From NCBI RefSeq assembly GCF_014193585.1, contig NZ_BLXY01000009.1:62001-126000 (forward strand): a stretch of DNA of 64,000 nt, written 5' to 3'. Shown piece by piece: positions 45,140 to 53,852 of this stretch. The notes beneath the pieces were generated by a model, which did no database searches, was not told where the DNA came from, and saw only the letters and a list, made by a program, of their open reading frames with translations. Within the stretch, counting starts at the first letter, position 1. Every line of letters starts with the position of its first letter. Made by a program: the position numbers and the translations under genes. The stretch comes from Geomonas paludis (lineage in GTDB: Bacteria > Desulfobacterota > Desulfuromonadia > Geobacterales > Geobacteraceae).

Positions 45140-45170
45140 GAAACGGTCTTGCAAAAGGTTTGAAAACAGG

Positions 45171-45199
45171 AAGGGGCAGCCTCACGGCTGCCCCTTCTT
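45171..45199 (+). terminator. Intrinsic terminator after hpnH
   Basis: AAGGGGCAGCC, loop TCAC, GGCTGCCCCTT, then CTTATT. The same hairpin with one base change occurs at 52438-52463, on the far side of the accessory block. Confidence 0.88.
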
Positions 45200-45250
45200 A
45201 TTCATCAGGCCTCTATCGTGGACTGGTGTGCGGTTGTCATTACTTTGCTT

Positions 45251-46582
45251 TTATATCGGTTCCAGCCCGAGCAGTTCCCGAAACTCTTTATCAGTAGCGA
45301 AGCATTCCAGATCATTCTCCTCCGCGTTTTTCGGTTTTCCTGAACTTGAAACATAATCTTTCAACATCAGCATCCTGAAGGTATCCAACCAGTTTTTGTC
45401 GGTGTCGAGCGCCTTTTTCATTGCATTGAGCGCTTTCATTCTGACATCCTCCAGATCTACCTCACTTTTCTTACGTTCCTCGGGAGGGAAGTTGGAATAG
45501 TACGCGAACTTCTGCCCATACGCGCTCGCCAAGTTAACCCAAATTGAACCGGCAACGGAGCCACTCGCACGAGTGACATATTCTTCTCCGTACTTGATGG
45601 CGTCGCTAAACCCCTTTGGTGGGTCCAGATATAGCGAAACGTAGGAGAGAGCGTTGTAAACACTCAGCACCTGGTAGGGTTCTGTACGTGCGTTGATTTT
45701 CTTGTACGCCGTCAACAGTTTTGTACGCACATCCTCAATCGGTCTGCCCGCCGCTTCCAGTGTTTCGGCAAATTCAAGAAGTAGCCCTATATCATCCGGG
45801 AACTGAGAGACGGCCAGGGCATACCCCTTGATGGCATCCTCGTAGTTCTTCTTGATCAATTGTGCTTTGGCCCATGCCGCGTAATCTTCAGGCTTGCCAC
45901 CCAGTTGATTCAAGGAATACTTGGCTAGGTTAGTGGCTGCTTTTTCGACCGGCTTTGCCAGTTCGGCATGACCATCACCCGCGTTGAATTTCCCCAGTGA
46001 CGCCACCTCGGTCTTTTTCAGTAATTGGAGATCGCTGCGAGAAGCCAGCTGAGCATCGGCGTACTTGAAGGCACCTGCGAGAAAGATGCGCGTCAGTATA
46101 TACCCCGAGAGAAAGCCGAGGGTTATGAAGTACACCACCGTAGCCGCCGCCAACGGCTGCGCCTGCTGCGGCCCGTTAAGGCCTATGCCGCCTGCAATGA
46201 AAACGGTTGCCCGTTGGAAATACTCGTATATCGTACGCAGTTCCACCAACCCGACGCCTACAATGATCTTTGTGAGCCAATCGGATATCTGCTCCAAGTT
46301 CGTGTTCTGTTCCAGATTGGATTCCTGCAAAGTCCGGTCTCCATCCGGTGGGGCGTTTCCGCTCGCATTTTTCTTGCCGGTTTGGTCGACCCGGGGAATG
46401 CCAAACAGAAAGCCAAGGAGGACCCCCCCGCTAAACAACGCCAGAGCGCACATCAGGACAACGTGTGTGGAACTGCACAACCAGATGAGATATAGCCCCA
46501 AAGCTCCGAAGAGAAGCGTTAGCATCGCCACGAGTGAGGCATTTTTCAGCGTTTCTGTTTTGCAGACCGCGCTTTCTTCCAT
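45251..46582 (-). CDS. Membrane-anchored TPR protein of the accessory block
   Basis: A 443-residue protein with about four hydrophobic helices in the first 165 residues (two near 15-60, two near 105-165) and a soluble C-terminal helical-repeat region (about 210-400) that looks like TPR/Sel1-type pairs (AWAKAQLIKKNYEDAIKGYA). The segment FLFGIPR, then NTNLEQISDWLTKIIVGVGLVEL, resembles membrane modules I associate with bacterial immunity-like proteins, but this is from memory. The start at 46582 has GGGAGG eight bases upstream; the GTG at 46591 is too close to it. Base composition looks less G+C-rich than flanking genes. It probably acts as a scaffold or sensor for the metacaspase encoded just upstream. 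Confidence 0.75.
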   Translation of the reverse strand: MEESAVCKTETLKNASLVAMLTLLFGALGLYLIWLCSSTHVVLMCALALFSGGVLLGFLFGIPRVDQTGKKNASGNAPPDGDRTLQESNLEQNTNLEQISDWLTKIIVGVGLVELRTIYEYFQRATVFIAGGIGLNGPQQAQPLAAATVVYFITLGFLSGYILTRIFLAGAFKYADAQLASRSDLQLLKKTEVASLGKFNAGDGHAELAKPVEKAATNLAKYSLNQLGGKPEDYAAWAKAQLIKKNYEDAIKGYALAVSQFPDDIGLLLEFAETLEAAGRPIEDVRTKLLTAYKKINARTEPYQVLSVYNALSYVSLYLDPPKGFSDAIKYGEEYVTRASGSVAGSIWVNLASAYGQKFAYYSNFPPEERKKSEVDLEDVRMKALNAMKKALDTDKNWLDTFRMLMLKDYVSSSGKPKNAEENDLECFATDKEFRELLGLEPI

Positions 46583-46769
46583 CACGGGCACCTCCCATAT
46601 CTTTGATATGCAGGCTTATAAGGGCGTCCCCAGCAAACGCCAGCATATCCGTTCAGGACTGACAGACATAGGACAACTGCAAAAACCGCGAACATGTCTA
46701 GCTCCTCAATAATGCTCGCGCGCTTCGAGCAGGTTATTGAAACAAGTCATTCCCGATGTAGCGGCAGAA

Positions 46770-48488
46770 TTATCGACCGGGTATCACGTGGCTGCACTTA
46801 TCTCTGGGACAAACCAGGTTAGGGGTCTGCTGGTACTTGAGCTCCTTCAGTCGCTGGGAGACAGCTTTGATCAGTGCCTCAAAGGTGACCGGCTTCGCGC
46901 CGCCCCGCAGCTTACGCATGACGTTCGCCAGACAGTAGGTGAAGGCTCCATAGGAGGTGACTCCGTGCCGGTATTCGTAGGAATACTCCTCCTCGCTGCA
47001 GGCCTCGAGAAGAATAGGGATGAAAGGGCCTTGATGCCGGTAGGCTTTGGTGGCCTTGCGGAATCCGGTCGCGGAGGTCCAAAGCGGTACGGCCCGCCCC
47101 AGAAGGCGCTCTGCTCCGCTGTCCCCTAGGAAATTGGCTTTATCTCCCTTGTCGATCATTTTCGCAGTGGCCAGCTTCAATTCCCGGGGGATCCACATGC
47201 AGCGTTTTGCATCCCACTTAAGCGAGCGGTGGCGGATGTCGTCCGGCGGATCGAGGCCGCGCACCCTGACCGAACCGTTGCGGGTCATGCCTCCCGAATG
47301 GCAGCAGTCCAGTATCGCGGTGAAGTTCGTGTCGTATGGGAGTTGGCTGTAGAGTTGGCAGAACCAGTCGTCGGTAATGGCCTTTTCCTTGGACCAGTCG
47401 AAGTCGTACGGGACCAGACACTCGTCCACATGATCCACTTCTTCCTTGCCGCCGTAGCCAGGGATCTGCGCTCCATGCCCGCTGTAGAAGAAGACGCGCT
47501 GGTCGCCCTTGGCGGCCCCGTCCATGAGCCACTCCAACCGTTGCCGGATGCCGTCCGCAGTGGCTCGTTCGTTGAAGACCACCCGAATATCCTCGGGAGG
47601 GAACCCCTGCTCTTGGAGAATCTCGCTCATCAAAAAGACGTCGTTGATGCACCCCTCCAGGCGGTCACCGGGGTTGGGGTAGTCGTTGATACCGACCAGG
47701 AGCGCACGGAACTGCGGCTTGGCGGTCGTCTTCTTGACCGCCGTATAGGCGCGACTGAGGGACCTGGGTGTTTTGCCGAACACAGGGGTCCATACGTTGG
47801 TGATGGCATTGGGGTGAGAGAGATAGTGCGCCGGATCATGATCCGCGATTCCGGGGATGTCGAAATAGGTGGTGACCTGTTCGAAGTTGTCCGCCCTGAT
47901 GTCAATCTCCGCGGTGAGGACACTATCGTTTTTGTTGTAGAGGTGGTACCAGAAGGACGTCTGTTCCAGGGGCACCAGTCGCCCCCCGAAGATGGAGCGC
48001 ACGAACGGGTTGCCGATCTGGGAACCCAGGCTCACGAAGGTTCTGCCCGCCACTATCTCGGGTTGGCGTGCGAAGGTATCATAAGCGATCAGGGAACCCA
48101 AGCTGTGGGCGCAGATCACGTCGGGTTTGAATGCGCTGATCTTTTGCGCCAGTGCGGCGTTGCAGGCAGCCCTAAGTTTCTCATCGGCGGCCCACTGCGC
48201 TACCATACCGGCAGTCCAGCGAATGTCGTCGCCGAAGCCCCGGGATGTGAAGATATCGCCGATGCCATGCCATACGCCGCTAGCCAGCAACCGTGCTAAC
48301 GCCTCTGCGACGATTGCGGCATCAAGCTTGGCGTTGGCGAAGATGCTGTCATAAGGAAGCCCGTCATACTCTAACTCTATATCGGCGGCGATACTGGCCG
48401 TGGCTTTAGCAATGGCCGCCTTCCAGTCAGCATCCCACATCCCACTTATTTCTTTGTGCCCCACGCCGTGAATCAGAAGGACTTTCAT
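46770..48488 (-). CDS. Alpha/beta-hydrolase-metacaspase fusion protein
   Basis: A 572-residue cytoplasmic protein with two enzyme domains and no signal peptide. Residues 1-240 form a lipase-like alpha/beta hydrolase: LLIHGVGH, nucleophile Ser129 in AHSLGS, acid Asp188 in NKNDSV and a His near 221 in PAHYLSH. Residues ~260-560 form a type I metacaspase (peptidase C14): FRALLVGINDYP, catalytic His338 in SGHGAQ and catalytic Cys396 in DCCHSGG. Metacaspases cleave after Arg/Lys. Both active sites look intact. The TPR membrane protein gene lies 187 bases downstream and an amidase gene 138 bases upstream. I infer a protease that triggers lipid hydrolysis or lysis; the target is unknown. Confidence 0.85.
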   Translation of the reverse strand: MKVLLIHGVGHKEISGMWDADWKAAIAKATASIAADIELEYDGLPYDSIFANAKLDAAIVAEALARLLASGVWHGIGDIFTSRGFGDDIRWTAGMVAQWAADEKLRAACNAALAQKISAFKPDVICAHSLGSLIAYDTFARQPEIVAGRTFVSLGSQIGNPFVRSIFGGRLVPLEQTSFWYHLYNKNDSVLTAEIDIRADNFEQVTTYFDIPGIADHDPAHYLSHPNAITNVWTPVFGKTPRSLSRAYTAVKKTTAKPQFRALLVGINDYPNPGDRLEGCINDVFLMSEILQEQGFPPEDIRVVFNERATADGIRQRLEWLMDGAAKGDQRVFFYSGHGAQIPGYGGKEEVDHVDECLVPYDFDWSKEKAITDDWFCQLYSQLPYDTNFTAILDCCHSGGMTRNGSVRVRGLDPPDDIRHRSLKWDAKRCMWIPRELKLATAKMIDKGDKANFLGDSGAERLLGRAVPLWTSATGFRKATKAYRHQGPFIPILLEACSEEEYSYEYRHGVTSYGAFTYCLANVMRKLRGGAKPVTFEALIKAVSQRLKELKYQQTPNLVCPRDKCSHVIPGR

Positions 48489-48626
48489 CGAGTACCCCCC
48501 TTGATCAGCGATATGTACGTGTGTAGGTGGTGTAAGAGGGGGACGTTGTCTCTCAAAAAAACAAGGACGTCCCCTGTCTTCCCCCTGTCTCGCATGCAGT
48601 GGCAGAGGACAGGTTATGGGAGGTTT

Positions 48627-49424
48627 TCACAATAAGTAATCGCCGCAAACCCATTGCTGGACCGCAGGATGGATGCGACACCAGCCGTTTCGGTCCTCGT
48701 AGACCTGGACAAGGACCCCTTTCTGGAGTTTCATCACTATCGGCGCGTCGATGCGCCCCTCGACGCGTACGTTCAAGAGGGAGGCGTTCACCATCGCTGA
48801 GCGAAGGGCGGAAGTCACTAGTGGCGCCGGTATCGCCGCACTCAGGGCCGTGAGCACTTCCGGTATGAATCCGGTCTGAGCCGCGTCTACCGAGTTGCCA
48901 CCGAAAAAAGCGGTCCCCGGACAGCTCTTGGTGTTTCCCGTCCCGCCGGTCCTTCGGCCTGTGTCGAGGTCGTACCAGTGGTGATAGACGATGGTTTCCG
49001 TTGTCGGCGTCAGTCGGAACTCACGGCAGAGCAGGGCGTTTACCTCGATTATCGCTTGTCTGTGCGCCTGAGTCATGGTGTCCCGTCCCGAATCGAAATC
49101 GCCGAGATTCTCGATGCAGATCCCGGCCTGGTTGGCGCCCTTAATGCCTGCGGGGATCTTTTCGAGCGGCCTGCAAAGAGCTACCGTTCCATCCGGAAAG
49201 GTCGTCAGGTTCTGGGCGATCTCGGAAAAGCCTCGCTCCACGACATGATAGTGCTCCATGCCACAGAGAAGATCGAAATGGTTCGATCCGGTGAACGAAC
49301 GGTAGGAAGGCTCCTTGGTATGGTGGTTCTGGATGACTTGAACCTTCCTGTTGAAACAGGTCTCCCGGAGCCACTGGTCGAATTCAGATATGGTGAGAAG
49401 GTTGAATTTGCCGTTACTGGTCAT
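48627..49424 (-). CDS. N-acetylmuramoyl-L-alanine amidase with SH3-like domain
   Basis: A 265-residue protein with an Amidase_2 (PGRP/T7-lysozyme-like) zinc domain and a C-terminal bacterial SH3 domain. Candidate zinc ligands are H34/H35 (IQNHHTKEPS), H148/H149 (YHHWYD) and C168 (SCPGTAFF); GICIENLGDFD is the usual core strand. Residues ~210-265 (LNVRVEG, GVLVQVYEDRNGWCRI) make the wall-binding SH3 fold. It should cut the amide between MurNAc and L-Ala in peptidoglycan. No signal peptide is present, so, like a phage endolysin, it would need a membrane pore to reach the wall; two small membrane proteins are encoded just upstream. Confidence 0.85.
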   Translation of the reverse strand: MTSNGKFNLLTISEFDQWLRETCFNRKVQVIQNHHTKEPSYRSFTGSNHFDLLCGMEHYHVVERGFSEIAQNLTTFPDGTVALCRPLEKIPAGIKGANQAGICIENLGDFDSGRDTMTQAHRQAIIEVNALLCREFRLTPTTETIVYHHWYDLDTGRRTGGTGNTKSCPGTAFFGGNSVDAAQTGFIPEVLTALSAAIPAPLVTSALRSAMVNASLLNVRVEGRIDAPIVMKLQKGVLVQVYEDRNGWCRIHPAVQQWVCGDYLL

Positions 49425-49453
49425 GGTAGTCCCTCCTGTTGCTTCGACAAAAA

Positions 49454-49951
49454 TTATCCAACCGATCCGTCGTCAGTCATCATCCGGGTCGCCATGGCGG
49501 GAGCTGCGGCTGGAACAGTTGCCGTTGCAGGAGTCGCTGTCACTGTTGCGGTTGCTGTCCCCCCTGGCGCCACCCCTCCCGATTCGCCCGGAGCCGCAGA
49601 GCCTCCTGTGTCCTCCGCCTGTCTTGCAGCCGAAACATCCTTCATGGCCTGGATGCCTTTACCCAATACATAGGAGCCGCCGCTGATACCGAGAAGGGAC
49701 AAAATACCGGCTGGTATCTCCACCGGAAATCCAGGTCCATCCTTCTTGCTTATGATCACGATAAAAAGGCTCATGGAGATGACGAACGTGAAAATGAGCA
49801 ACTGGAACCGCGCCATGCTCGCATTGCCGTTGTCTTCGCTGATGAGCATTCTCAGGTCGATCTTCCCTTTCACTATCAGGTAGAGAATAATGAGCTCCAG
49901 ACAGAAGAAGAAAATTGCTGTCATCCATTGAGTTGCGACAATAGGCTCCAT
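49454..49951 (-). CDS. Small three-helix membrane protein with Ala/Thr-rich tail
   Basis: A 165-residue protein with hydrophobic helices at about 9-28, 47-66 and 78-96 and a long low-complexity tail (GGTATATVTATPATATVPAA) that may lie outside or bind a partner. The pattern ARFQLLIFTFVIS with GGSYVLGKGI matches TRFQLLGVTVLTS with GGSNLLYLAGKF in the next upstream gene, so the two are related. The ATG at 49951 has GGAGGG four bases upstream, within an alternative GTG/ATG-led extension. The size and helix count resemble phage holins, and the amidase gene follows at 29 bases. No homology to a named holin family was recognised. Confidence 0.65.
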   Translation of the reverse strand: MEPIVATQWMTAIFFFCLELIILYLIVKGKIDLRMLISEDNGNASMARFQLLIFTFVISMSLFIVIISKKDGPGFPVEIPAGILSLLGISGGSYVLGKGIQAMKDVSAARQAEDTGGSAAPGESGGVAPGGTATATVTATPATATVPAAAPAMATRMMTDDGSVG

Positions 49952-49972
49952 GCTACCCTCCATTGTGACAAG

Positions 49973-50275
49973 TCACCTTGAAAGGAACTTGCCTGCTAAA
50001 TACAAAAGATTGCTGCCTCCCAGGATATAGAAAAGTTCAGGTGGGACTGCTGGAAGCTGTGAGGGGTTTTCAATGAGGCGGAAAGTAAAGTAACCAGAAG
50101 TGAGGACCGTGACACCGAGAAGTTGAAACCTTGTGACGTTGTTCCTTCTCCGGGTTGAGATGACCCCCCCCCGGATGCCGCTCTTTCCTTTGGTGACCTG
50201 AAAGATGGCTGCTACATAAAGGGCTACCACGAGTACCACAACTTGAACCTTCAAGATGGCGACGAGATGTTCCAT
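49973..50275 (-). CDS. Small three-helix membrane protein, paralogue of the next gene
   Basis: A 100-residue protein with three hydrophobic helices (about 7-27, 51-67 and 80-96) and a positively charged loop (KGKSGIRG, STRRRNN) between the first two. It shares the RFQLL segment and C-terminal GGSNLLYLAGK pattern with the 165-residue neighbour but lacks its tail. The ATG at 50275 has GGGGAG eight bases upstream. It might form a holin/antiholin-like pair with its paralogue; this is inference from size, topology and the adjacent amidase gene only. Confidence 0.65.
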   Translation of the reverse strand: MEHLVAILKVQVVVLVVALYVAAIFQVTKGKSGIRGGVISTRRRNNVTRFQLLGVTVLTSGYFTFRLIENPSQLPAVPPELFYILGGSNLLYLAGKFLSR

Positions 50276-50306
50276 AGCCGCTACTCCCCTTTTTTTGTCG
50301 CCACCA

Positions 50307-51188
50307 CTACTGGAACCAGGATACGGCCTTCTTGAACTTGCTCAGGTCGCTTGCGCTCAGGCCGAACATGAAGCTGCTGCCATCTGGCTTGTAGAGTCCC
50401 CACAGCCCGAGAGCGTTGAGTTGGGTGCCGGCGCCAAGCAGCAGCTTGGCGCGCTCGTCGAGGTTGCCCACGCCGATGCCCAGGCGGAAGCCGCTTTTCC
50501 GCACCCAGTTGGACAGAAAATTCTCTTTGAACACGAAAGGCATGGTGTTTTGATCTATCTCAGGGAAAAAGGTGTAACTAAGACCGGCCGTGCCCATGAT
50601 CGCGACCTGCGCTCCGTGCTCGAACGCCAGTGTTGGTTCGAATCGGAAGATCGCCTCCCACGGTGAGATGCCCAGGTTCGGCCGATGTAAAGCCTCGCCG
50701 GTGTGGTCGGCCCGTGTCAGCGACCAGTTGCTGTTGACGTATCCTTCGAGGAAATTGGCGTTTTTCGCGGTTTCGGTCTTGAAGTACTTCCTCTCGAGCA
50801 ACTGGTCCTGCAAGGATACGAGGTTGATGTAGTGAGACTTTAGATACGGTTGCAGGTTCATGTTGTAGGCGTCCACTTCCGCGGATACCCCGGAGGAATT
50901 CGACGTATCGGGTGTCAGCCCGCCGATCGCCTTTATCCTCGCGTTTTTAGCCGTCTTCAGGGCATCGGGAACACGCGGATCGCCCACCTCCAATCCATCG
51001 AGCGCAGATGCCCCGGTGAGGCAGGCCTCCAGATATGTCTGCACAATCACGTTGGTCTCGTTGGCACGCGCCAGTTGAACCTTCATCTTGTACTGTTCCA
51101 CTGAGGACGATAGTTGACCTGCCAGTGCGACCGTCGTCTGGACCAAAAAAACAACCCCGACGAGAAATCCGCTCACGTATTTGCTCAT
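50307..51188 (-). CDS. Secreted hypothetical protein, barrel-like C-terminus
   Basis: A 293-residue protein with a clear signal peptide (MSKYVSGFLVGVVFLVQTTV, then ALA-GQ). Residues ~25-150 are mainly helical and polar; from ~170 the sequence alternates in a way that suggests beta-strands (EAIFRFEPTLAFEHGAQVAIMG, SYTFFPEI, GFRLGIGVGNL, ALGLWGLYKP, SFMFGLSAS). It is probably periplasmic or inserted in the outer membrane. I do not recognise the family. It begins one base before the end of the upstream hydrolase gene region, so the two are tightly linked; the small membrane protein gene follows at 31 bases. Confidence 0.65.
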   Translation of the reverse strand: MSKYVSGFLVGVVFLVQTTVALAGQLSSSVEQYKMKVQLARANETNVIVQTYLEACLTGASALDGLEVGDPRVPDALKTAKNARIKAIGGLTPDTSNSSGVSAEVDAYNMNLQPYLKSHYINLVSLQDQLLERKYFKTETAKNANFLEGYVNSNWSLTRADHTGEALHRPNLGISPWEAIFRFEPTLAFEHGAQVAIMGTAGLSYTFFPEIDQNTMPFVFKENFLSNWVRKSGFRLGIGVGNLDERAKLLLGAGTQLNALGLWGLYKPDGSSFMFGLSASDLSKFKKAVSWFQ

Positions 51189-51189
51189 T

Positions 51190-52098
51190 TCATGCTCCCT
51201 TTCCCAGCATAGCTGACAATGCCGAGCTGAACTGGGGCTGCTTCAAATAGGTGAGGACGTCATGGTTTTCCGCTATCTTGCCGGGGTCGCGCGTACCGAA
51301 GGAGATGAACTCAACGCATCCCGGGTGCTCCGTATTCAGGACCTTGATCTCGGCCGGGGTGAACCCCTGCCGCAGTGGAATCAAATCCACCAGCTTTCCT
51401 GGGGCAACCTGAAACTTGACGTCGCTGCACACAATGTCGTTTTCATTGCAGATGAACCTGAGCTTGTCCTTTCCCAGCATGTTCCACATGCGGGCGAACA
51501 TTGACAGGGTTGTCAGGCGGTCCCAGTCAAAGTACTCTCCCATCCTCTGAAGGAAATCCTTGCAGACGTTGCGGATCGGGGATTCGAACCCCAGCGGTGA
51601 AGCCAATAGGATCATGCCGCGGTAGGGAACGGTCCCGGTCTCGGCGAACTCACGCCACACCAGGTGAGGCAGCATCGCCGCGCCAAGGGAATGCCCCACC
51701 AGGATGGTGTCCGCCTCCTTGAACACTTCCTTCCCGTTGGCATCCCGGCGCAGAGCCTCAAGCTTGAGAGCACACTCGTCCTGGATCATGAGCCACATGT
51801 CCGGCAGGCCCACGTAGACCAGGACGTCCATCATGTAGTCCCTGAAGACTTTCCAGCTGTCATTGCCCACCCACTTCTGCAGGTCGGTGAAGCCGCACAT
51901 CCCGACGACATCGGCCATGGCTCCGCTTACCACATCGTACTTGTCCTCGACCTTTTGCAAGACTTCTTCCCAGAAAAGCCCCTTGACCGTGACGTTGGTG
52001 AGATCGGTGTTTTGCCTGATCGCCGATTCCCAGGACTGACAGAAATCTTCTGCGGCATTGCCGATCCCATGTGCGACAACAATGAGTGTGTTTTGCAT
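51190..52098 (-). CDS. Lipase-like alpha/beta hydrolase of the accessory block
   Basis: A 302-residue cytoplasmic serine hydrolase. It begins LIVVAHGIGNAAEDFCQSWE, like the first domain of the hydrolase-metacaspase fusion. The nucleophile is Ser137 in VGHSLGAAM; NENDIV probably holds the acid and AENHDVL the catalytic His. A lipase or thioesterase role is possible; the substrate is unknown. The ATG at 52098 has GGAGG four bases upstream; a frame open to 52275 is rejected because it crosses leader DNA. It is the first gene of the block and abuts the secreted-protein gene (one base between). Confidence 0.8.
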   Translation of the reverse strand: MQNTLIVVAHGIGNAAEDFCQSWESAIRQNTDLTNVTVKGLFWEEVLQKVEDKYDVVSGAMADVVGMCGFTDLQKWVGNDSWKVFRDYMMDVLVYVGLPDMWLMIQDECALKLEALRRDANGKEVFKEADTILVGHSLGAAMLPHLVWREFAETGTVPYRGMILLASPLGFESPIRNVCKDFLQRMGEYFDWDRLTTLSMFARMWNMLGKDKLRFICNENDIVCSDVKFQVAPGKLVDLIPLRQGFTPAEIKVLNTEHPGCVEFISFGTRDPGKIAENHDVLTYLKQPQFSSALSAMLGKGA

Positions 52099-52437
52099 GA
52101 CTCCTCCTTGTTTGATGGCGCGTACAGTGAACCGAGTCAGCTTAAAGTGTATGAAGCTGCTGCAAACGAGTTTTATGGAGCCTGGATTTGTGCTCTGAAA
52201 AGGGTGGGGGGATGACTGCCATTGACCGCAAAAGTCATACCGCGGATGGCGCCGAAGGAAAGTATACAAAAACAAGCACTTCGAGGAATTTGTGCTGACA
52301 AAACCGGTTGCTGTGTGTGAACATTTTTACAGTACCCTCATCATGAAACAAAAAAAACATGTTAAATCGCATGTTAATAGACGTTGTAAAATAATTCACA
52401 CTGTGATTTTTTTTACAACGTTGTGAGATTCAACGAG
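52099..52437 (-). promoter_or_regulatory. A+T-rich leader of the accessory block
   Basis: This region, upstream of the first hydrolase gene, becomes very A+T-rich from 52260 on. It holds a direct repeat CATGTTAA (52358-52365 and 52370-52377, 12 bases apart) and a nested inverted repeat: outer arms ACGTTGTAAAA (52381-52391) and TTTTACAACGT (52411-52421), inner arms TCACA (52396-52400) and TGTGA (52402-52406). It looks like an operator region; no promoter boxes were assigned. Confidence 0.5.
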
Positions 52438-52470
52438 AAGGGGCAGCCTTACGGCTGCCCCTTCTTTTTG
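52438..52470 (+). terminator. Orphan terminator matching the hpnH terminator
   Basis: AAGGGGCAGCC, loop TTAC, GGCTGCCCCTT and then CTTTTT form a strong plus-strand terminator, but no plus-strand gene precedes it for 7.3 kb. It differs from the hpnH terminator by one loop base. Confidence 0.85.
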
Positions 52471-52607
52471 TCCACATCATTCGAGGTCGGCACACAATTC
52501 TTCTCGCCCCCCCGGATCCCCTCCGCCGGAGCACTGCCCCCACCTGCTCGACCCCAGTCACCTTCATTTCCACTTTCTCCAGGGACACTTTTCCCTTCAG
52601 GTCGAAG

Positions 52608-52674
52608 AAAAGGGGACGGGCTACTTTTCCATTTCCAGCAGCCGGACTTTAAAAAGTAGCCTGTCCCCTTTTTT
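52608..52674. repeat. AAAAGTAGCCTGTCCCC inverted repeat
   Basis: AAAAGGGGACGGGCTACTTTT (52609-52628) pairs with AAAAGTAGCCTGTCCCCTTTT (52652-52672) around 23 bases. A single arm of the same family is at 53660-53680. It lies after the DUF3105 gene and could act as its terminator. The rest of 52471-52693 shows no gene. Confidence 0.8.
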
Positions 52675-52693
52675 CCTGTCCCCGACTCTCCTG

Positions 52694-53260
52694 TTATTGC
52701 ATCTCATTTTGCCCATGTTCCGGGCCTTTGCCGCGGAATGCGTCGATGAACGCCTTTGCACGGCCCGGATCAAAGGGATCAAGACGGAGCATCTTGGTCC
52801 AGGCCGTAAGGATCACCACATCTCCCAGTCCTGGCAGCGGGGTGACGATTATCCCATCCCACTTGCCGCCATATCGTTTTTGCCATTTATTCAGTTGAGC
52901 GAGTACGGATGGCGCTGGTGTTTCGTAGTAGATGACGATGTTGCCGTGCTCCAGCGAGTGAACCAGCTTTTCCGGCGCTTGAGGGATCTTGTAGAAAGCG
53001 GGCTTGACCGGTTTGGGGTCGTGGGGACCGGAAGTGGGAGGGTAGTGGCCATACTCCCATTTCTCGCCGGGATCCAGATGTGCCCGCCCTTCTGAACGGA
53101 AAGTCTGAACCTGTTCAAGCCCCTTAACGTCTGCGGGAGCATCTTCCTTGGGAACGGAATCATGAGCCATGGCGACCGACACGGTTAGAGCCAGAAAGGT
53201 CAGGGCCACGGTCAGCCGGAAGCATCTATTCAGCGAAGATGAAAGCATGATCGATTTCAC
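52694..53260 (-). CDS. DUF3105 exported protein
   Basis: A 188-residue protein with a signal peptide (about 1-32, ending SVAMAHD) and a DUF3105 domain marked by YPPTSGPHDP, LVHSLEHGNIVIYY and WDGIIVTPLP. The function of the family is unknown; the two conserved His residues suggest metal or cofactor binding in the periplasm. The GTG start overlaps the stop of the upstream cupin gene (GTGA), so they are translationally coupled; an ATG four codons later is the alternative. Confidence 0.82.
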   Translation of the reverse strand: MKSIMLSSSLNRCFRLTVALTFLALTVSVAMAHDSVPKEDAPADVKGLEQVQTFRSEGRAHLDPGEKWEYGHYPPTSGPHDPKPVKPAFYKIPQAPEKLVHSLEHGNIVIYYETPAPSVLAQLNKWQKRYGGKWDGIIVTPLPGLGDVVILTAWTKMLRLDPFDPGRAKAFIDAFRGKGPEHGQNEMQ

Positions 53261-53598: not shown

Positions 53599-53852
53599 AG
53601 CGATCTCCTGTTGTACGCAGAACCTACCGTGGCCTAGTCCCTATTTTAGCATTTCAAAGAAAAGGGGACAGGCTACTTTTCTATCTTCGACCTTCTGGCA
53701 TGGGTGCGATTCGTGCCGGAGCTTGCCTAGTCTAATCAACGAGGGGGGATCTTCTTACTCATGGCGGGACGGTCAGGGCGGGACGTAGGTGACTTATGTA
53801 ACGTGTTAATGTCGTTGGGGTAGTGGCGTCACAACAGGCCCACAGTCCCCCT

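What the first reader, a model, noticed from the sequence alone, without database searches (positions are those of the whole stretch)
45251..52098. Seven-gene accessory block combining a metacaspase, lipase-like hydrolases, holin-like proteins and a wall amidase
Seen: seven same-strand genes with short gaps at the upstream end (1, 31, 21 and 29 bases, then 138 and 187), encoding in order a lipase-like hydrolase, a secreted barrel-like protein, two related three-helix membrane proteins, a zinc amidase with an SH3-like domain, an alpha/beta hydrolase-metacaspase fusion and a membrane TPR protein. Known: caspase-like proteases act as switches in bacterial suicide and antiphage systems, and amidase plus small membrane proteins is the layout of phage lysis cassettes. 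Inferred: a protease-gated lysis module aimed at the cell's own envelope, for defence or programmed release. I know of no named system with this set.
Basis: partly seen in the sequence, partly recalled or inferred. Interest (0 to 1): 0.82.

Follow-up and report, generated by a model that had tools for sequence, protein, structure and literature searches.

The report
Caspase and envelope-hydrolase gene cassette
A relative of Geobacter carries a seven-gene insert that pairs a caspase-like protease with enzymes likely to attack its wall and membranes, plausibly a self-destruct kit; the combination is unusual, but caspase-plus-wall-amidase operons were already noted in 2012.

Summary
The seven genes are real and form a discrete accessory unit. 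They lie between two near-identical 38-bp hairpin repeats and are absent from the orthologous site in 9 of 9 congeners examined; one of these shows an almost clean empty site with a single hairpin copy. The full set was found nowhere else.

Subsets recur. (1) A 60%-identical hydrolase-caspase fusion in another genome of the phylum sits with a second caspase, an outer-membrane phospholipase, an alpha/beta hydrolase, a membrane protein and a putative wall hydrolase. (2) The two small membrane proteins are a split form of a tandem-domain protein. Wall hydrolases or patatins adjoin this domain in three other genomes, but in only 2 of the 27 membrane-pair loci; 15 of 27 carry an unknown family instead. 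(3) Relatives of the last gene's membrane domain adjoin putative wall hydrolases in two Rhizobium plasmids, with a caspase or a Tle1-like phospholipase.

Best reading: a caspase-controlled envelope-lysis (suicide) cassette, about 0.47; trigger, gating and phenotype are untested. Closest precedents: caspase/hydrolase conflict systems (Kaur 2020), LypABC lysis (2026) and the 2012 metacaspase-amidase survey. New variant of a known kind.

The parts
45165..45202 (.). left copy of the 38-bp hairpin repeat, downstream of the hpnH-like gene (recalled name)
   Evidence: D3, 89% to the right copy; hairpin core at 2 sites in the own genome and 1 in the 19-kb stretch L096 of the empty-site congener; homology with the 9 congeners ends between 45132 and 45199
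45251..46591 (-). gene 7: membrane domain (FGIPR...NTNLEQISDWLTK motif) plus TPR-like C-terminal part; possible sensor or adaptor
   Evidence: TPR sub-threshold; 3 hydrophobic segments; 30-34% identity to three Rhizobium plasmid relatives
46770..48488 (-). gene 6: alpha/beta-hydrolase domain (HSLG) fused to metacaspase domain (SGHG ... DCCHSG)
   Evidence: PADLOC caspase 4.5e-19; 60% orthologue; metacaspase structures; motif positions
48627..49424 (-). gene 5: Amidase_2 wall hydrolase with SH3 domain, no signal peptide
   Evidence: PHROG endolysin 1.5e-6; NHHT, YHHWY, KSCPG; no hydrophobic N-terminus
49454..49963 (-). gene 4 (TM2): small membrane protein, three helices in the model, RFQLLxFTF motif
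   Evidence: 20-row alignment; model
49973..50275 (-). gene 3 (TM1): small membrane protein homologous to gene 4
   Evidence: 1.8e-9 against the TM2 profile
50307..51188 (-). gene 2: exported-looking protein of unknown fold
   Evidence: N-terminal hydrophobic segment; no usable model; own genome only, of 148
51190..52098 (-). gene 1: alpha/beta hydrolase (HGIG, GHSLG), lipase-like, no signal peptide
   Evidence: own genome only, of 198 searched
52432..52469 (.). right copy of the 38-bp hairpin repeat

Best explanation
The block is a horizontally acquired 7.3-kb accessory cassette, most likely a caspase-regulated envelope-lysis (suicide) module with tools for more than one envelope layer. Shown: the unit, its boundaries, the domain content and catalytic motifs. 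Inferred: a stress or infection signal, perhaps sensed through the membrane/TPR-like protein (gene 7), activates the cytoplasmic metacaspase; proteolysis releases the lipase-like hydrolases (gene 1 and the front half of gene 6) and opens or unblocks the small membrane pair (genes 3-4); the signal-less amidase (gene 5) then reaches the wall; the exported protein (gene 2) acts at or beyond the periplasm. The cell dies or lyses, for population-level defence or release. Proteolytic gating, the pore role of genes 3-4 and the place of gene 2 are the weakest steps.
For: Insert between hairpin repeats, absent in 9 of 9 congeners at the site. Independent operon around the only other full-length gene-6 relative found (L049, 60% identity): second caspase, OMPLA-type phospholipase PF02253 1.2e-36 and DUF900 hydrolase 1.2e-27, a three-segment membrane protein and a putative muralytic protein, all on one strand, with none of the window's other six proteins recognised there. 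Membrane pair just before an amidase (L004: gaps 36 and 3 bp), before a muramidase then a patatin (L008), and, as a fused tandem, 42 bp before a patatin (L131). Gene-7-type membrane domain directly after a putative wall hydrolase in two Rhizobium plasmids, followed by a Tle1-like phospholipase (8.1e-67, L073) or by DUF1353 and a caspase (L047). Nine wall hydrolases/lipases tested (window genes 1 and 5; L004 and L008 wall enzymes; muralytic-type proteins of L047, L049, L073; L049 DUF900; L073 Tle1) show no hydrophobic N-terminus; the OMPLA does. Literature: in VMAP systems caspase domains always have an alpha/beta-hydrolase neighbour (PMC7159879, passages); metacaspase-Amidase_2 fusions, one also with a lipase domain (PMC3501461); peptidases needed for lysis in LypABC (PMC13236601).
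Against: The full set was found only in this genome. Genes 1, 2 and the gene-7 domain hit only the own genome in 198, 148 and 148 genomes of the phylum. Of 27 membrane-pair loci only 2 have a wall hydrolase beside the pair; 15 have an unknown family right after it and 10 have neither; none of 15 lytic, caspase and unknown-family queries plus the window proteins showed another lytic neighbour in the stretches held. Genomes with the pair have no caspase fusion: 6 of 23 matched, by the caspase part alone. Four other caspase loci of the phylum show no lytic relative. The gene-5 relative in Sinorhizobium looks like an orphan. No NTPase sensor, gasdermin or nuclease was recognised. The 138- and 178-bp gaps allow more than one transcription unit; promoter- and terminator-like counts are at chance. 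No cleavage site or phenotype is known.
Confidence: 0.47

Rival explanations
1. A patchwork: two or three unrelated accessory units (hydrolase plus exported protein; membrane pair plus amidase; caspase fusion plus membrane protein) that sit together in one variable site without one shared function.
For: Larger gaps of 138 and 178 bp before genes 6 and 7; pieces occur apart elsewhere; the same site carries unrelated cargo in several congeners.
Against: All seven lie on one strand inside one pair of near-identical repeats; other operons combine the same functional classes.
Confidence: 0.25
2. An interbacterial weapon: wall hydrolase and lipases are effectors aimed at neighbours, with the caspase or membrane proteins as export or immunity parts.
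For: Tle1-like domain, named for T6SS phospholipase effectors, beside the muralytic-type protein in L073; exported-looking gene 2.
Against: Genes 1, 5 and 6 have no export signal; no secretion-effector domain was hit in the seven proteins; no immunity protein recognised.
Confidence: 0.12
3. Envelope maintenance or stress repair: amidase, lipase and protease turn over damaged wall and lipid.
For: Amidases and lipases commonly do this (established knowledge); the membrane pair is mostly found without lytic partners.
Against: Gene 3 has no match in 18 of 18 congeners; the block is an acquired, repeat-bounded insert.
Confidence: 0.12
4. Degenerate prophage lysis region.
For: Amidase plus small membrane proteins resembles a lysis cassette; PHROG endolysin/amidase matches to gene 5 and one weak PHROG match (unknown function, 6.9e-5) to the caspase domain.
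Against: No PHROG hit to genes 3-4; no relative of gene 4 in 50,697 phage records; none of gene 4 or of the caspase fusion in the pattern-based IMG/VR scans; gene 5 matches 4 phage records, each over 31-38% of its length.
Confidence: 0.02

Closest known systems
Metacaspase operons and fusions with Amidase_2 (Asplund-Samuelsson et al. 2012, PMC3501461; sections 8 and 13 read, other passages seen)
   Same: Metacaspase with a wall amidase, in one operon in Geobacter sulfurreducens PCA and fused in four bacteria, one also with a GDSL lipase; programmed death suggested there.
   Different: Here amidase and caspase are separate, the caspase is fused to an alpha/beta hydrolase, and a membrane pair, an exported protein and a membrane/TPR-like protein are added. 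The G. sulfurreducens operon itself was not examined here.
NTP-dependent conflict systems: caspase/alpha-beta-hydrolase pairing and the NucA-trypsin System 3 (Kaur et al. 2020, PMC7159879; section 32 and passages read)
   Same: Caspase coupled to an alpha/beta hydrolase; peptidoglycan-attacking effectors proposed.
   Different: No MoxR, vWA, GTPase, STAND, NucA or trypsin domain was hit in the window proteins.
LypABC / CARD-NLR lysis hub of Caulobacter (Banks et al. 2026, PMC13236601; abstract, sections 9 and 13 read)
   Same: Peptidase activity is required for host-cell lysis; the downstream lytic effector is unknown there.
   Different: Trypsin-like peptidases plus NLR-type ATPase; no such genes in the window block.
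Canu caspase-nuclease systems (Tuck et al. 2025, PMC12799240; abstract and passages read)
   Same: Caspase activates a co-encoded effector enzyme.
   Different: Effector is a nuclease; here the candidate effectors are wall and lipid hydrolases.
Phage holin-endolysin cassettes (general knowledge)
   Same: Signal-less amidase next to small membrane proteins.
   Different: No phage homologue of the membrane proteins found; chromosomal accessory unit with a caspase.

Membership tests
Metacaspase (Peptidase_C14) | Caspase fold with His-Cys dyad | tested here: met
   PF00656 4.8e-31; SGHG and DCCHSG motifs; metacaspase structures matched down to 2.1e-22; dyad residues assigned from recalled motifs
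VMAP / MoxR-vWA ternary systems | MoxR ATPase, vWA protein and VMAP component | tested here: not met
   no MoxR or vWA Pfam hit in the seven proteins nor in nine right-flank ORFs; the rest of the genome was not scanned
EACC1-associated caspase system | caspase of the EACC1 type with an EACC1 gene | tested here: not met
   NF047832 47 bits against a cut-off of 140; no EACC1 match among the seven proteins
CARD-NLR / LypABC | trypsin-like peptidase plus NLR-type ATPase | tested here: not met
   no such domain hit in the block
Bacterial gasdermin systems | gasdermin pore protein | tested here: not met
   no gasdermin hit in Pfam, PADLOC or NCBIfam; a remote relative in gene 2 cannot be excluded
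Canu | caspase with MBL-type pro-nuclease | tested here: not met
   no nuclease domain hit in the block
Phage lysis cassette | endolysin lacking its own export signal | tested here: met
   gene 5
Phage lysis cassette | small membrane proteins related to known holins | tested here: not met
   no PHROG hit to genes 3-4; no phage or viral relative of gene 4; no PDB match for the gene-4 family
Phage lysis cassette | membrane proteins form holes that release the endolysin | not testable with these tools
   needs expression assays
Anti-phage defence system | protection against phage | not testable with these tools
   of the seven proteins only the caspase fusion matches a PADLOC model

The most novel reading that the evidence does not exclude
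A modular class of caspase-controlled lysis cassettes attacks several envelope layers and swaps non-homologous parts in each slot (amidase, muramidase or other wall hydrolase; lipase, patatin, Tle1 or OMPLA; membrane pair or other membrane protein). The RFQLLxFTF tandem membrane domain would be one of the gates. Such cassettes would be candidates for the missing lytic effectors downstream of peptidase-driven death hubs.
Probability: 0.2. Interest if true: 0.8.

Novelty: new variant of a known kind. Interest (0 to 1): 0.5.

Why it matters
In the caspase and related peptidase systems seen in the papers read, the executioner is a nuclease, a gasdermin, a phospholipase or unknown. A caspase that controls wall and lipid hydrolases would be a lysis-type executioner encoded beside its protease. 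The LypABC authors state that the lytic effector of their peptidase hub is unknown; this cassette and its partial relatives give concrete candidates to test, and a small membrane-domain family to follow.

Tried and rejected
Prophage origin: rejected, though the muralytic-type domain of L049 has one phage relative (Bradyrhizobium phage, 40%). Defence hotspot: cargo at the site in congeners looks, by eye, like sensor kinase, cytochrome, transposase and unknown genes (part of that output was cut); PADLOC at 1e-5 matched 2 families (mad2 in 2 members, a methyltransferase in 1) among 41 proteins scanned of 53 listed ORFs, 12 left out as short or doubtful, so no clear defence island. Gene 1 and the front of gene 6 as paralogues: BLASTP E 0.20, not shown. 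Fold of gene 2: failed. Fold of gene 4: no PDB match better than E 6. Plasmid relatives: none for genes 1 and 4. L107, a gene-7-domain relative in a genome of the phylum of L011: no lytic neighbour recognised by eye. Rfam: nothing. Papers: a search for pYEATS found none.

Weak tool of mine: my simple ORF picker lost the gene-4 relative in 5 of 27 loci and in the window itself and the caspase in 3 of 4 caspase loci, so counts of neighbours rest on the later tblastn run, not. I lowered the main odds from 0.50 to 0.47 and the novel case from 0.22 to 0.20, and raised the patchwork rival from 0.22 to 0.25, because the check showed the membrane pair's usual partner is not lytic.

Labels from recall, not from a call: 'muralytic' or lysozyme-like for the domain of L049/L047/L073 (no Pfam or PDB match of its own; supported by fusion to PG_binding_1 in L047 and L073 and Peptidase_M15 in L070), 'SPOR-like' for the tail of the L049 membrane protein (no Pfam hit), 'hpnH', amidase and caspase residue roles, 'LodA-like' in L073, Nostocales as a group name.
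Full report
Check of the observation. Domain scans agree on caspase (4.8e-31), Amidase_2 (2.9e-10) and SH3; the hydrolase labels of genes 1 and 6 are sub-threshold but both carry HGIG/HGVG and HSLG motifs. TPR in gene 7 is sub-threshold, and 'barrel' for gene 2 could not be tested. Genes 3 and 4 are homologous; gene 4 models with three long helices at moderate confidence, while a hydropathy scan found two segments in it and one in gene 3.

A discrete insert. G+C is about 0.63 on average to the left and 0.51-0.60 across 45-57 kb. Gene 3 has no match in 18 of 18 congeners (2 of 58 genomes overall, the own one included). All 19 genomes of the genus searched, the own one included, have the upstream gene. 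I took the orthologous site from 9 congeners: in all 9 the seven genes are missing. In L096 homology runs from window 45199 to 53257 with 43 bases between the matched pieces; in the others the interval is longer or holds other sequence. The seven genes lie between two copies of a 38-bp hairpin repeat, 45165-45202 and 52432-52469, 89% identical. The hairpin core (up to 3 mismatches) occurs at two sites in the own genome, these two, and the reversed control pattern at none; the 19-kb stretch L096 has one site (the rest of that genome was not searched). The DUF3105 gene at 52694-53260 is outside the repeats but also without a match in the 9 stretches. No integrase domain was hit in the block, so the mode of entry is unknown.

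The caspase fusion. Full-length relatives are rare: 2 of 297 genomes of the phylum sample including the own one (14 of 297 match at 1e-20, the other 12 in the caspase part only), and 2 strong of 395 with the front domain alone (5 further genomes have weak partial matches, E 2e-5 to 9e-5). No plasmid record matched over the front domain in the 30 of 179 records listed (rows start at residue 189 or later). The one other genome, L049, is 60% identical over the whole length. Its genes, all on one strand, are the relative, a second caspase, an ORF6N-like protein (the upstream copy hits PF10543), a 268-aa muralytic-type protein, a membrane protein, a DUF900 alpha/beta hydrolase (1.2e-27) and an OMPLA-type phospholipase (PF02253, 1.2e-36). 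None of the other six window proteins was recognised there, so functional classes recur while parts differ. This is the strongest single argument for an envelope target. Against it, four other caspase loci of the phylum (L050-L053, 14-15 kb each) show no relative of the lytic queries.

The membrane pair. A pattern scan of a collection of 84,980 species genomes gave 27 loci with a gene-4 relative, from Acidobacteria, cyanobacteria, a Geobacter MAG, a deltaproteobacterial MAG and a gemmatimonad. A gene-3 relative was detected just upstream in many. A tblastn run with window proteins and 15 further queries gives: wall hydrolase right after the pair in 2 of 27 (amidase in L005, the same place as L004, Amidase_2 2e-16; muramidase 2.2e-40 then patatin 4.3e-8 in L008); an unknown ~300-aa family right after it in 15 of 27; neither in 10 of 27 (8 cyanobacterial loci, L007, L031). 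I did not scan every neighbour with Pfam. Genomes with the pair lack the caspase fusion: 6 of 23 searched matched, by the caspase part alone. A profile search of 395 phylum genomes hit 6 including the own one. Four of the other five hits are single proteins with two tandem copies of the domain; one of these lies 42 bp before a patatin (L131, 4e-13); the fifth was not recovered as a protein. The tandem fusions suggest that genes 3 and 4 work together. A hole-forming role is inferred from size, topology and a minority of neighbourhoods only.

The last gene. Its membrane domain has relatives in Rhizobium plasmids (2 records, a third). In L047 such a gene overlaps by 4 bp the gene of a muralytic-type protein with PG_binding_1 and is followed by DUF1353 and a caspase. 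In L073 it follows a similar protein by 33 bp and precedes a Tle1-like phospholipase (8.1e-67). In L048 no lytic neighbour is annotated apart from none, and in L107 none was recognised. In the phylum sample only the own genome has it (1 of 148); 1 of 199 in the phylum of L011.

The muralytic-type domain of L049 hit 12 plasmid records. Within 7 kb, 6 of 12 have a peptidase or lipase: trypsin-like (H33), trypsin-nuclease fusion with alpha/beta hydrolase and CHAT (H34), caspases (H35), S8 peptidase and patatin on the opposite strand (H37), caspases and CHAT (H38), Tle1-like (H39). The 4 Methylobacterium records, Nodularia and a Rhodoplanes plasmid with phage tail genes do not, by annotation. Five control stretches of five of these plasmids had none by annotation, though one lists a putative metallopeptidase. 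The control is small and less closely read than the hits, so this is suggestive only. The same domain occurs in 1 of 50,697 phage records.

Mechanism. The amidase, gene 1 and gene 6 lack export signals, gene 2 has a signal-like N-terminus. With membrane proteins next to the amidase this is the logic of holin and endolysin, here beside a protease. I therefore commit, at about 0.47, to caspase-controlled self-lysis. The order of events, the gate and the trigger are inference.

Comparison with print. Kaur et al. 2020 (PMC7159879; passages and section 32) report that caspase domains in VMAP systems always have an alpha/beta-hydrolase neighbour, and propose wall-attacking effectors in NucA-trypsin systems; the core NTPases were not found in this block. 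Asplund-Samuelsson et al. 2012 (PMC3501461; sections 8 and 13, passages) already list metacaspase-Amidase_2 fusions, one with lipase, and an amidase in a metacaspase operon of G. sulfurreducens, and suggest programmed death. Banks et al. 2026 (PMC13236601; abstract, sections 9 and 13, passages) show peptidase-dependent lysis with unknown effector. Tuck et al. 2025 (PMC12799240; abstract and passages) show a caspase activating a nuclease in phage defence. Searches for caspase with hydrolase, holin, endolysin and lysis terms listed no paper that I recognised as describing this set; only the held open-access library was searched, and all but the papers named were seen as listings or, for PMC8195603, passages.

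Verdict. A real, discrete, probably functional accessory cassette; new variant of a known kind; the suicide reading is plausible and testable, and the idea of caspase plus amidase is not new.

Noticed in passing
window 52608-52672 and 53660-53680: REP-like 21-bp hairpin arm with 32 matches (up to 2 mismatches) in the genome and 0 for the reversed control, three of them by the right edge of the insert.
   Followed up: partly
L011:10354-11271 and 14 other loci: Unknown ~300-aa family right after the membrane pair in 15 of 27 loci, mainly Acidobacteria; only a weak DUF4431 match. The commonest partner of the pair, so a key to its role.
   Followed up: partly
L126, L127, L128, L129: Single proteins with two tandem copies of the TM1/TM2 domain, one with a TIG domain; no Pfam model was hit for the membrane part.
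   Followed up: partly
L068 (Caulobacter rhizosphaerae plasmid): Two trypsin-like peptidases and an AAA ATPase around a muralytic-type protein, reminiscent of LypABC with a wall hydrolase added.
   Followed up: partly
L073:10307-13408: LodA/LodB-like oxidase genes (recalled) next to the muralytic-type, membrane and Tle1-like genes.
   Followed up: no
L013-L017, L019-L021: Membrane pair in 8 cyanobacterial loci without any lytic or unknown-family partner detected; role unexplained.
   Followed up: partly
window 45200-53256: The interval downstream of the radical-SAM gene holds different sequence in several congeners, a variable site in the genus.
   Followed up: partly
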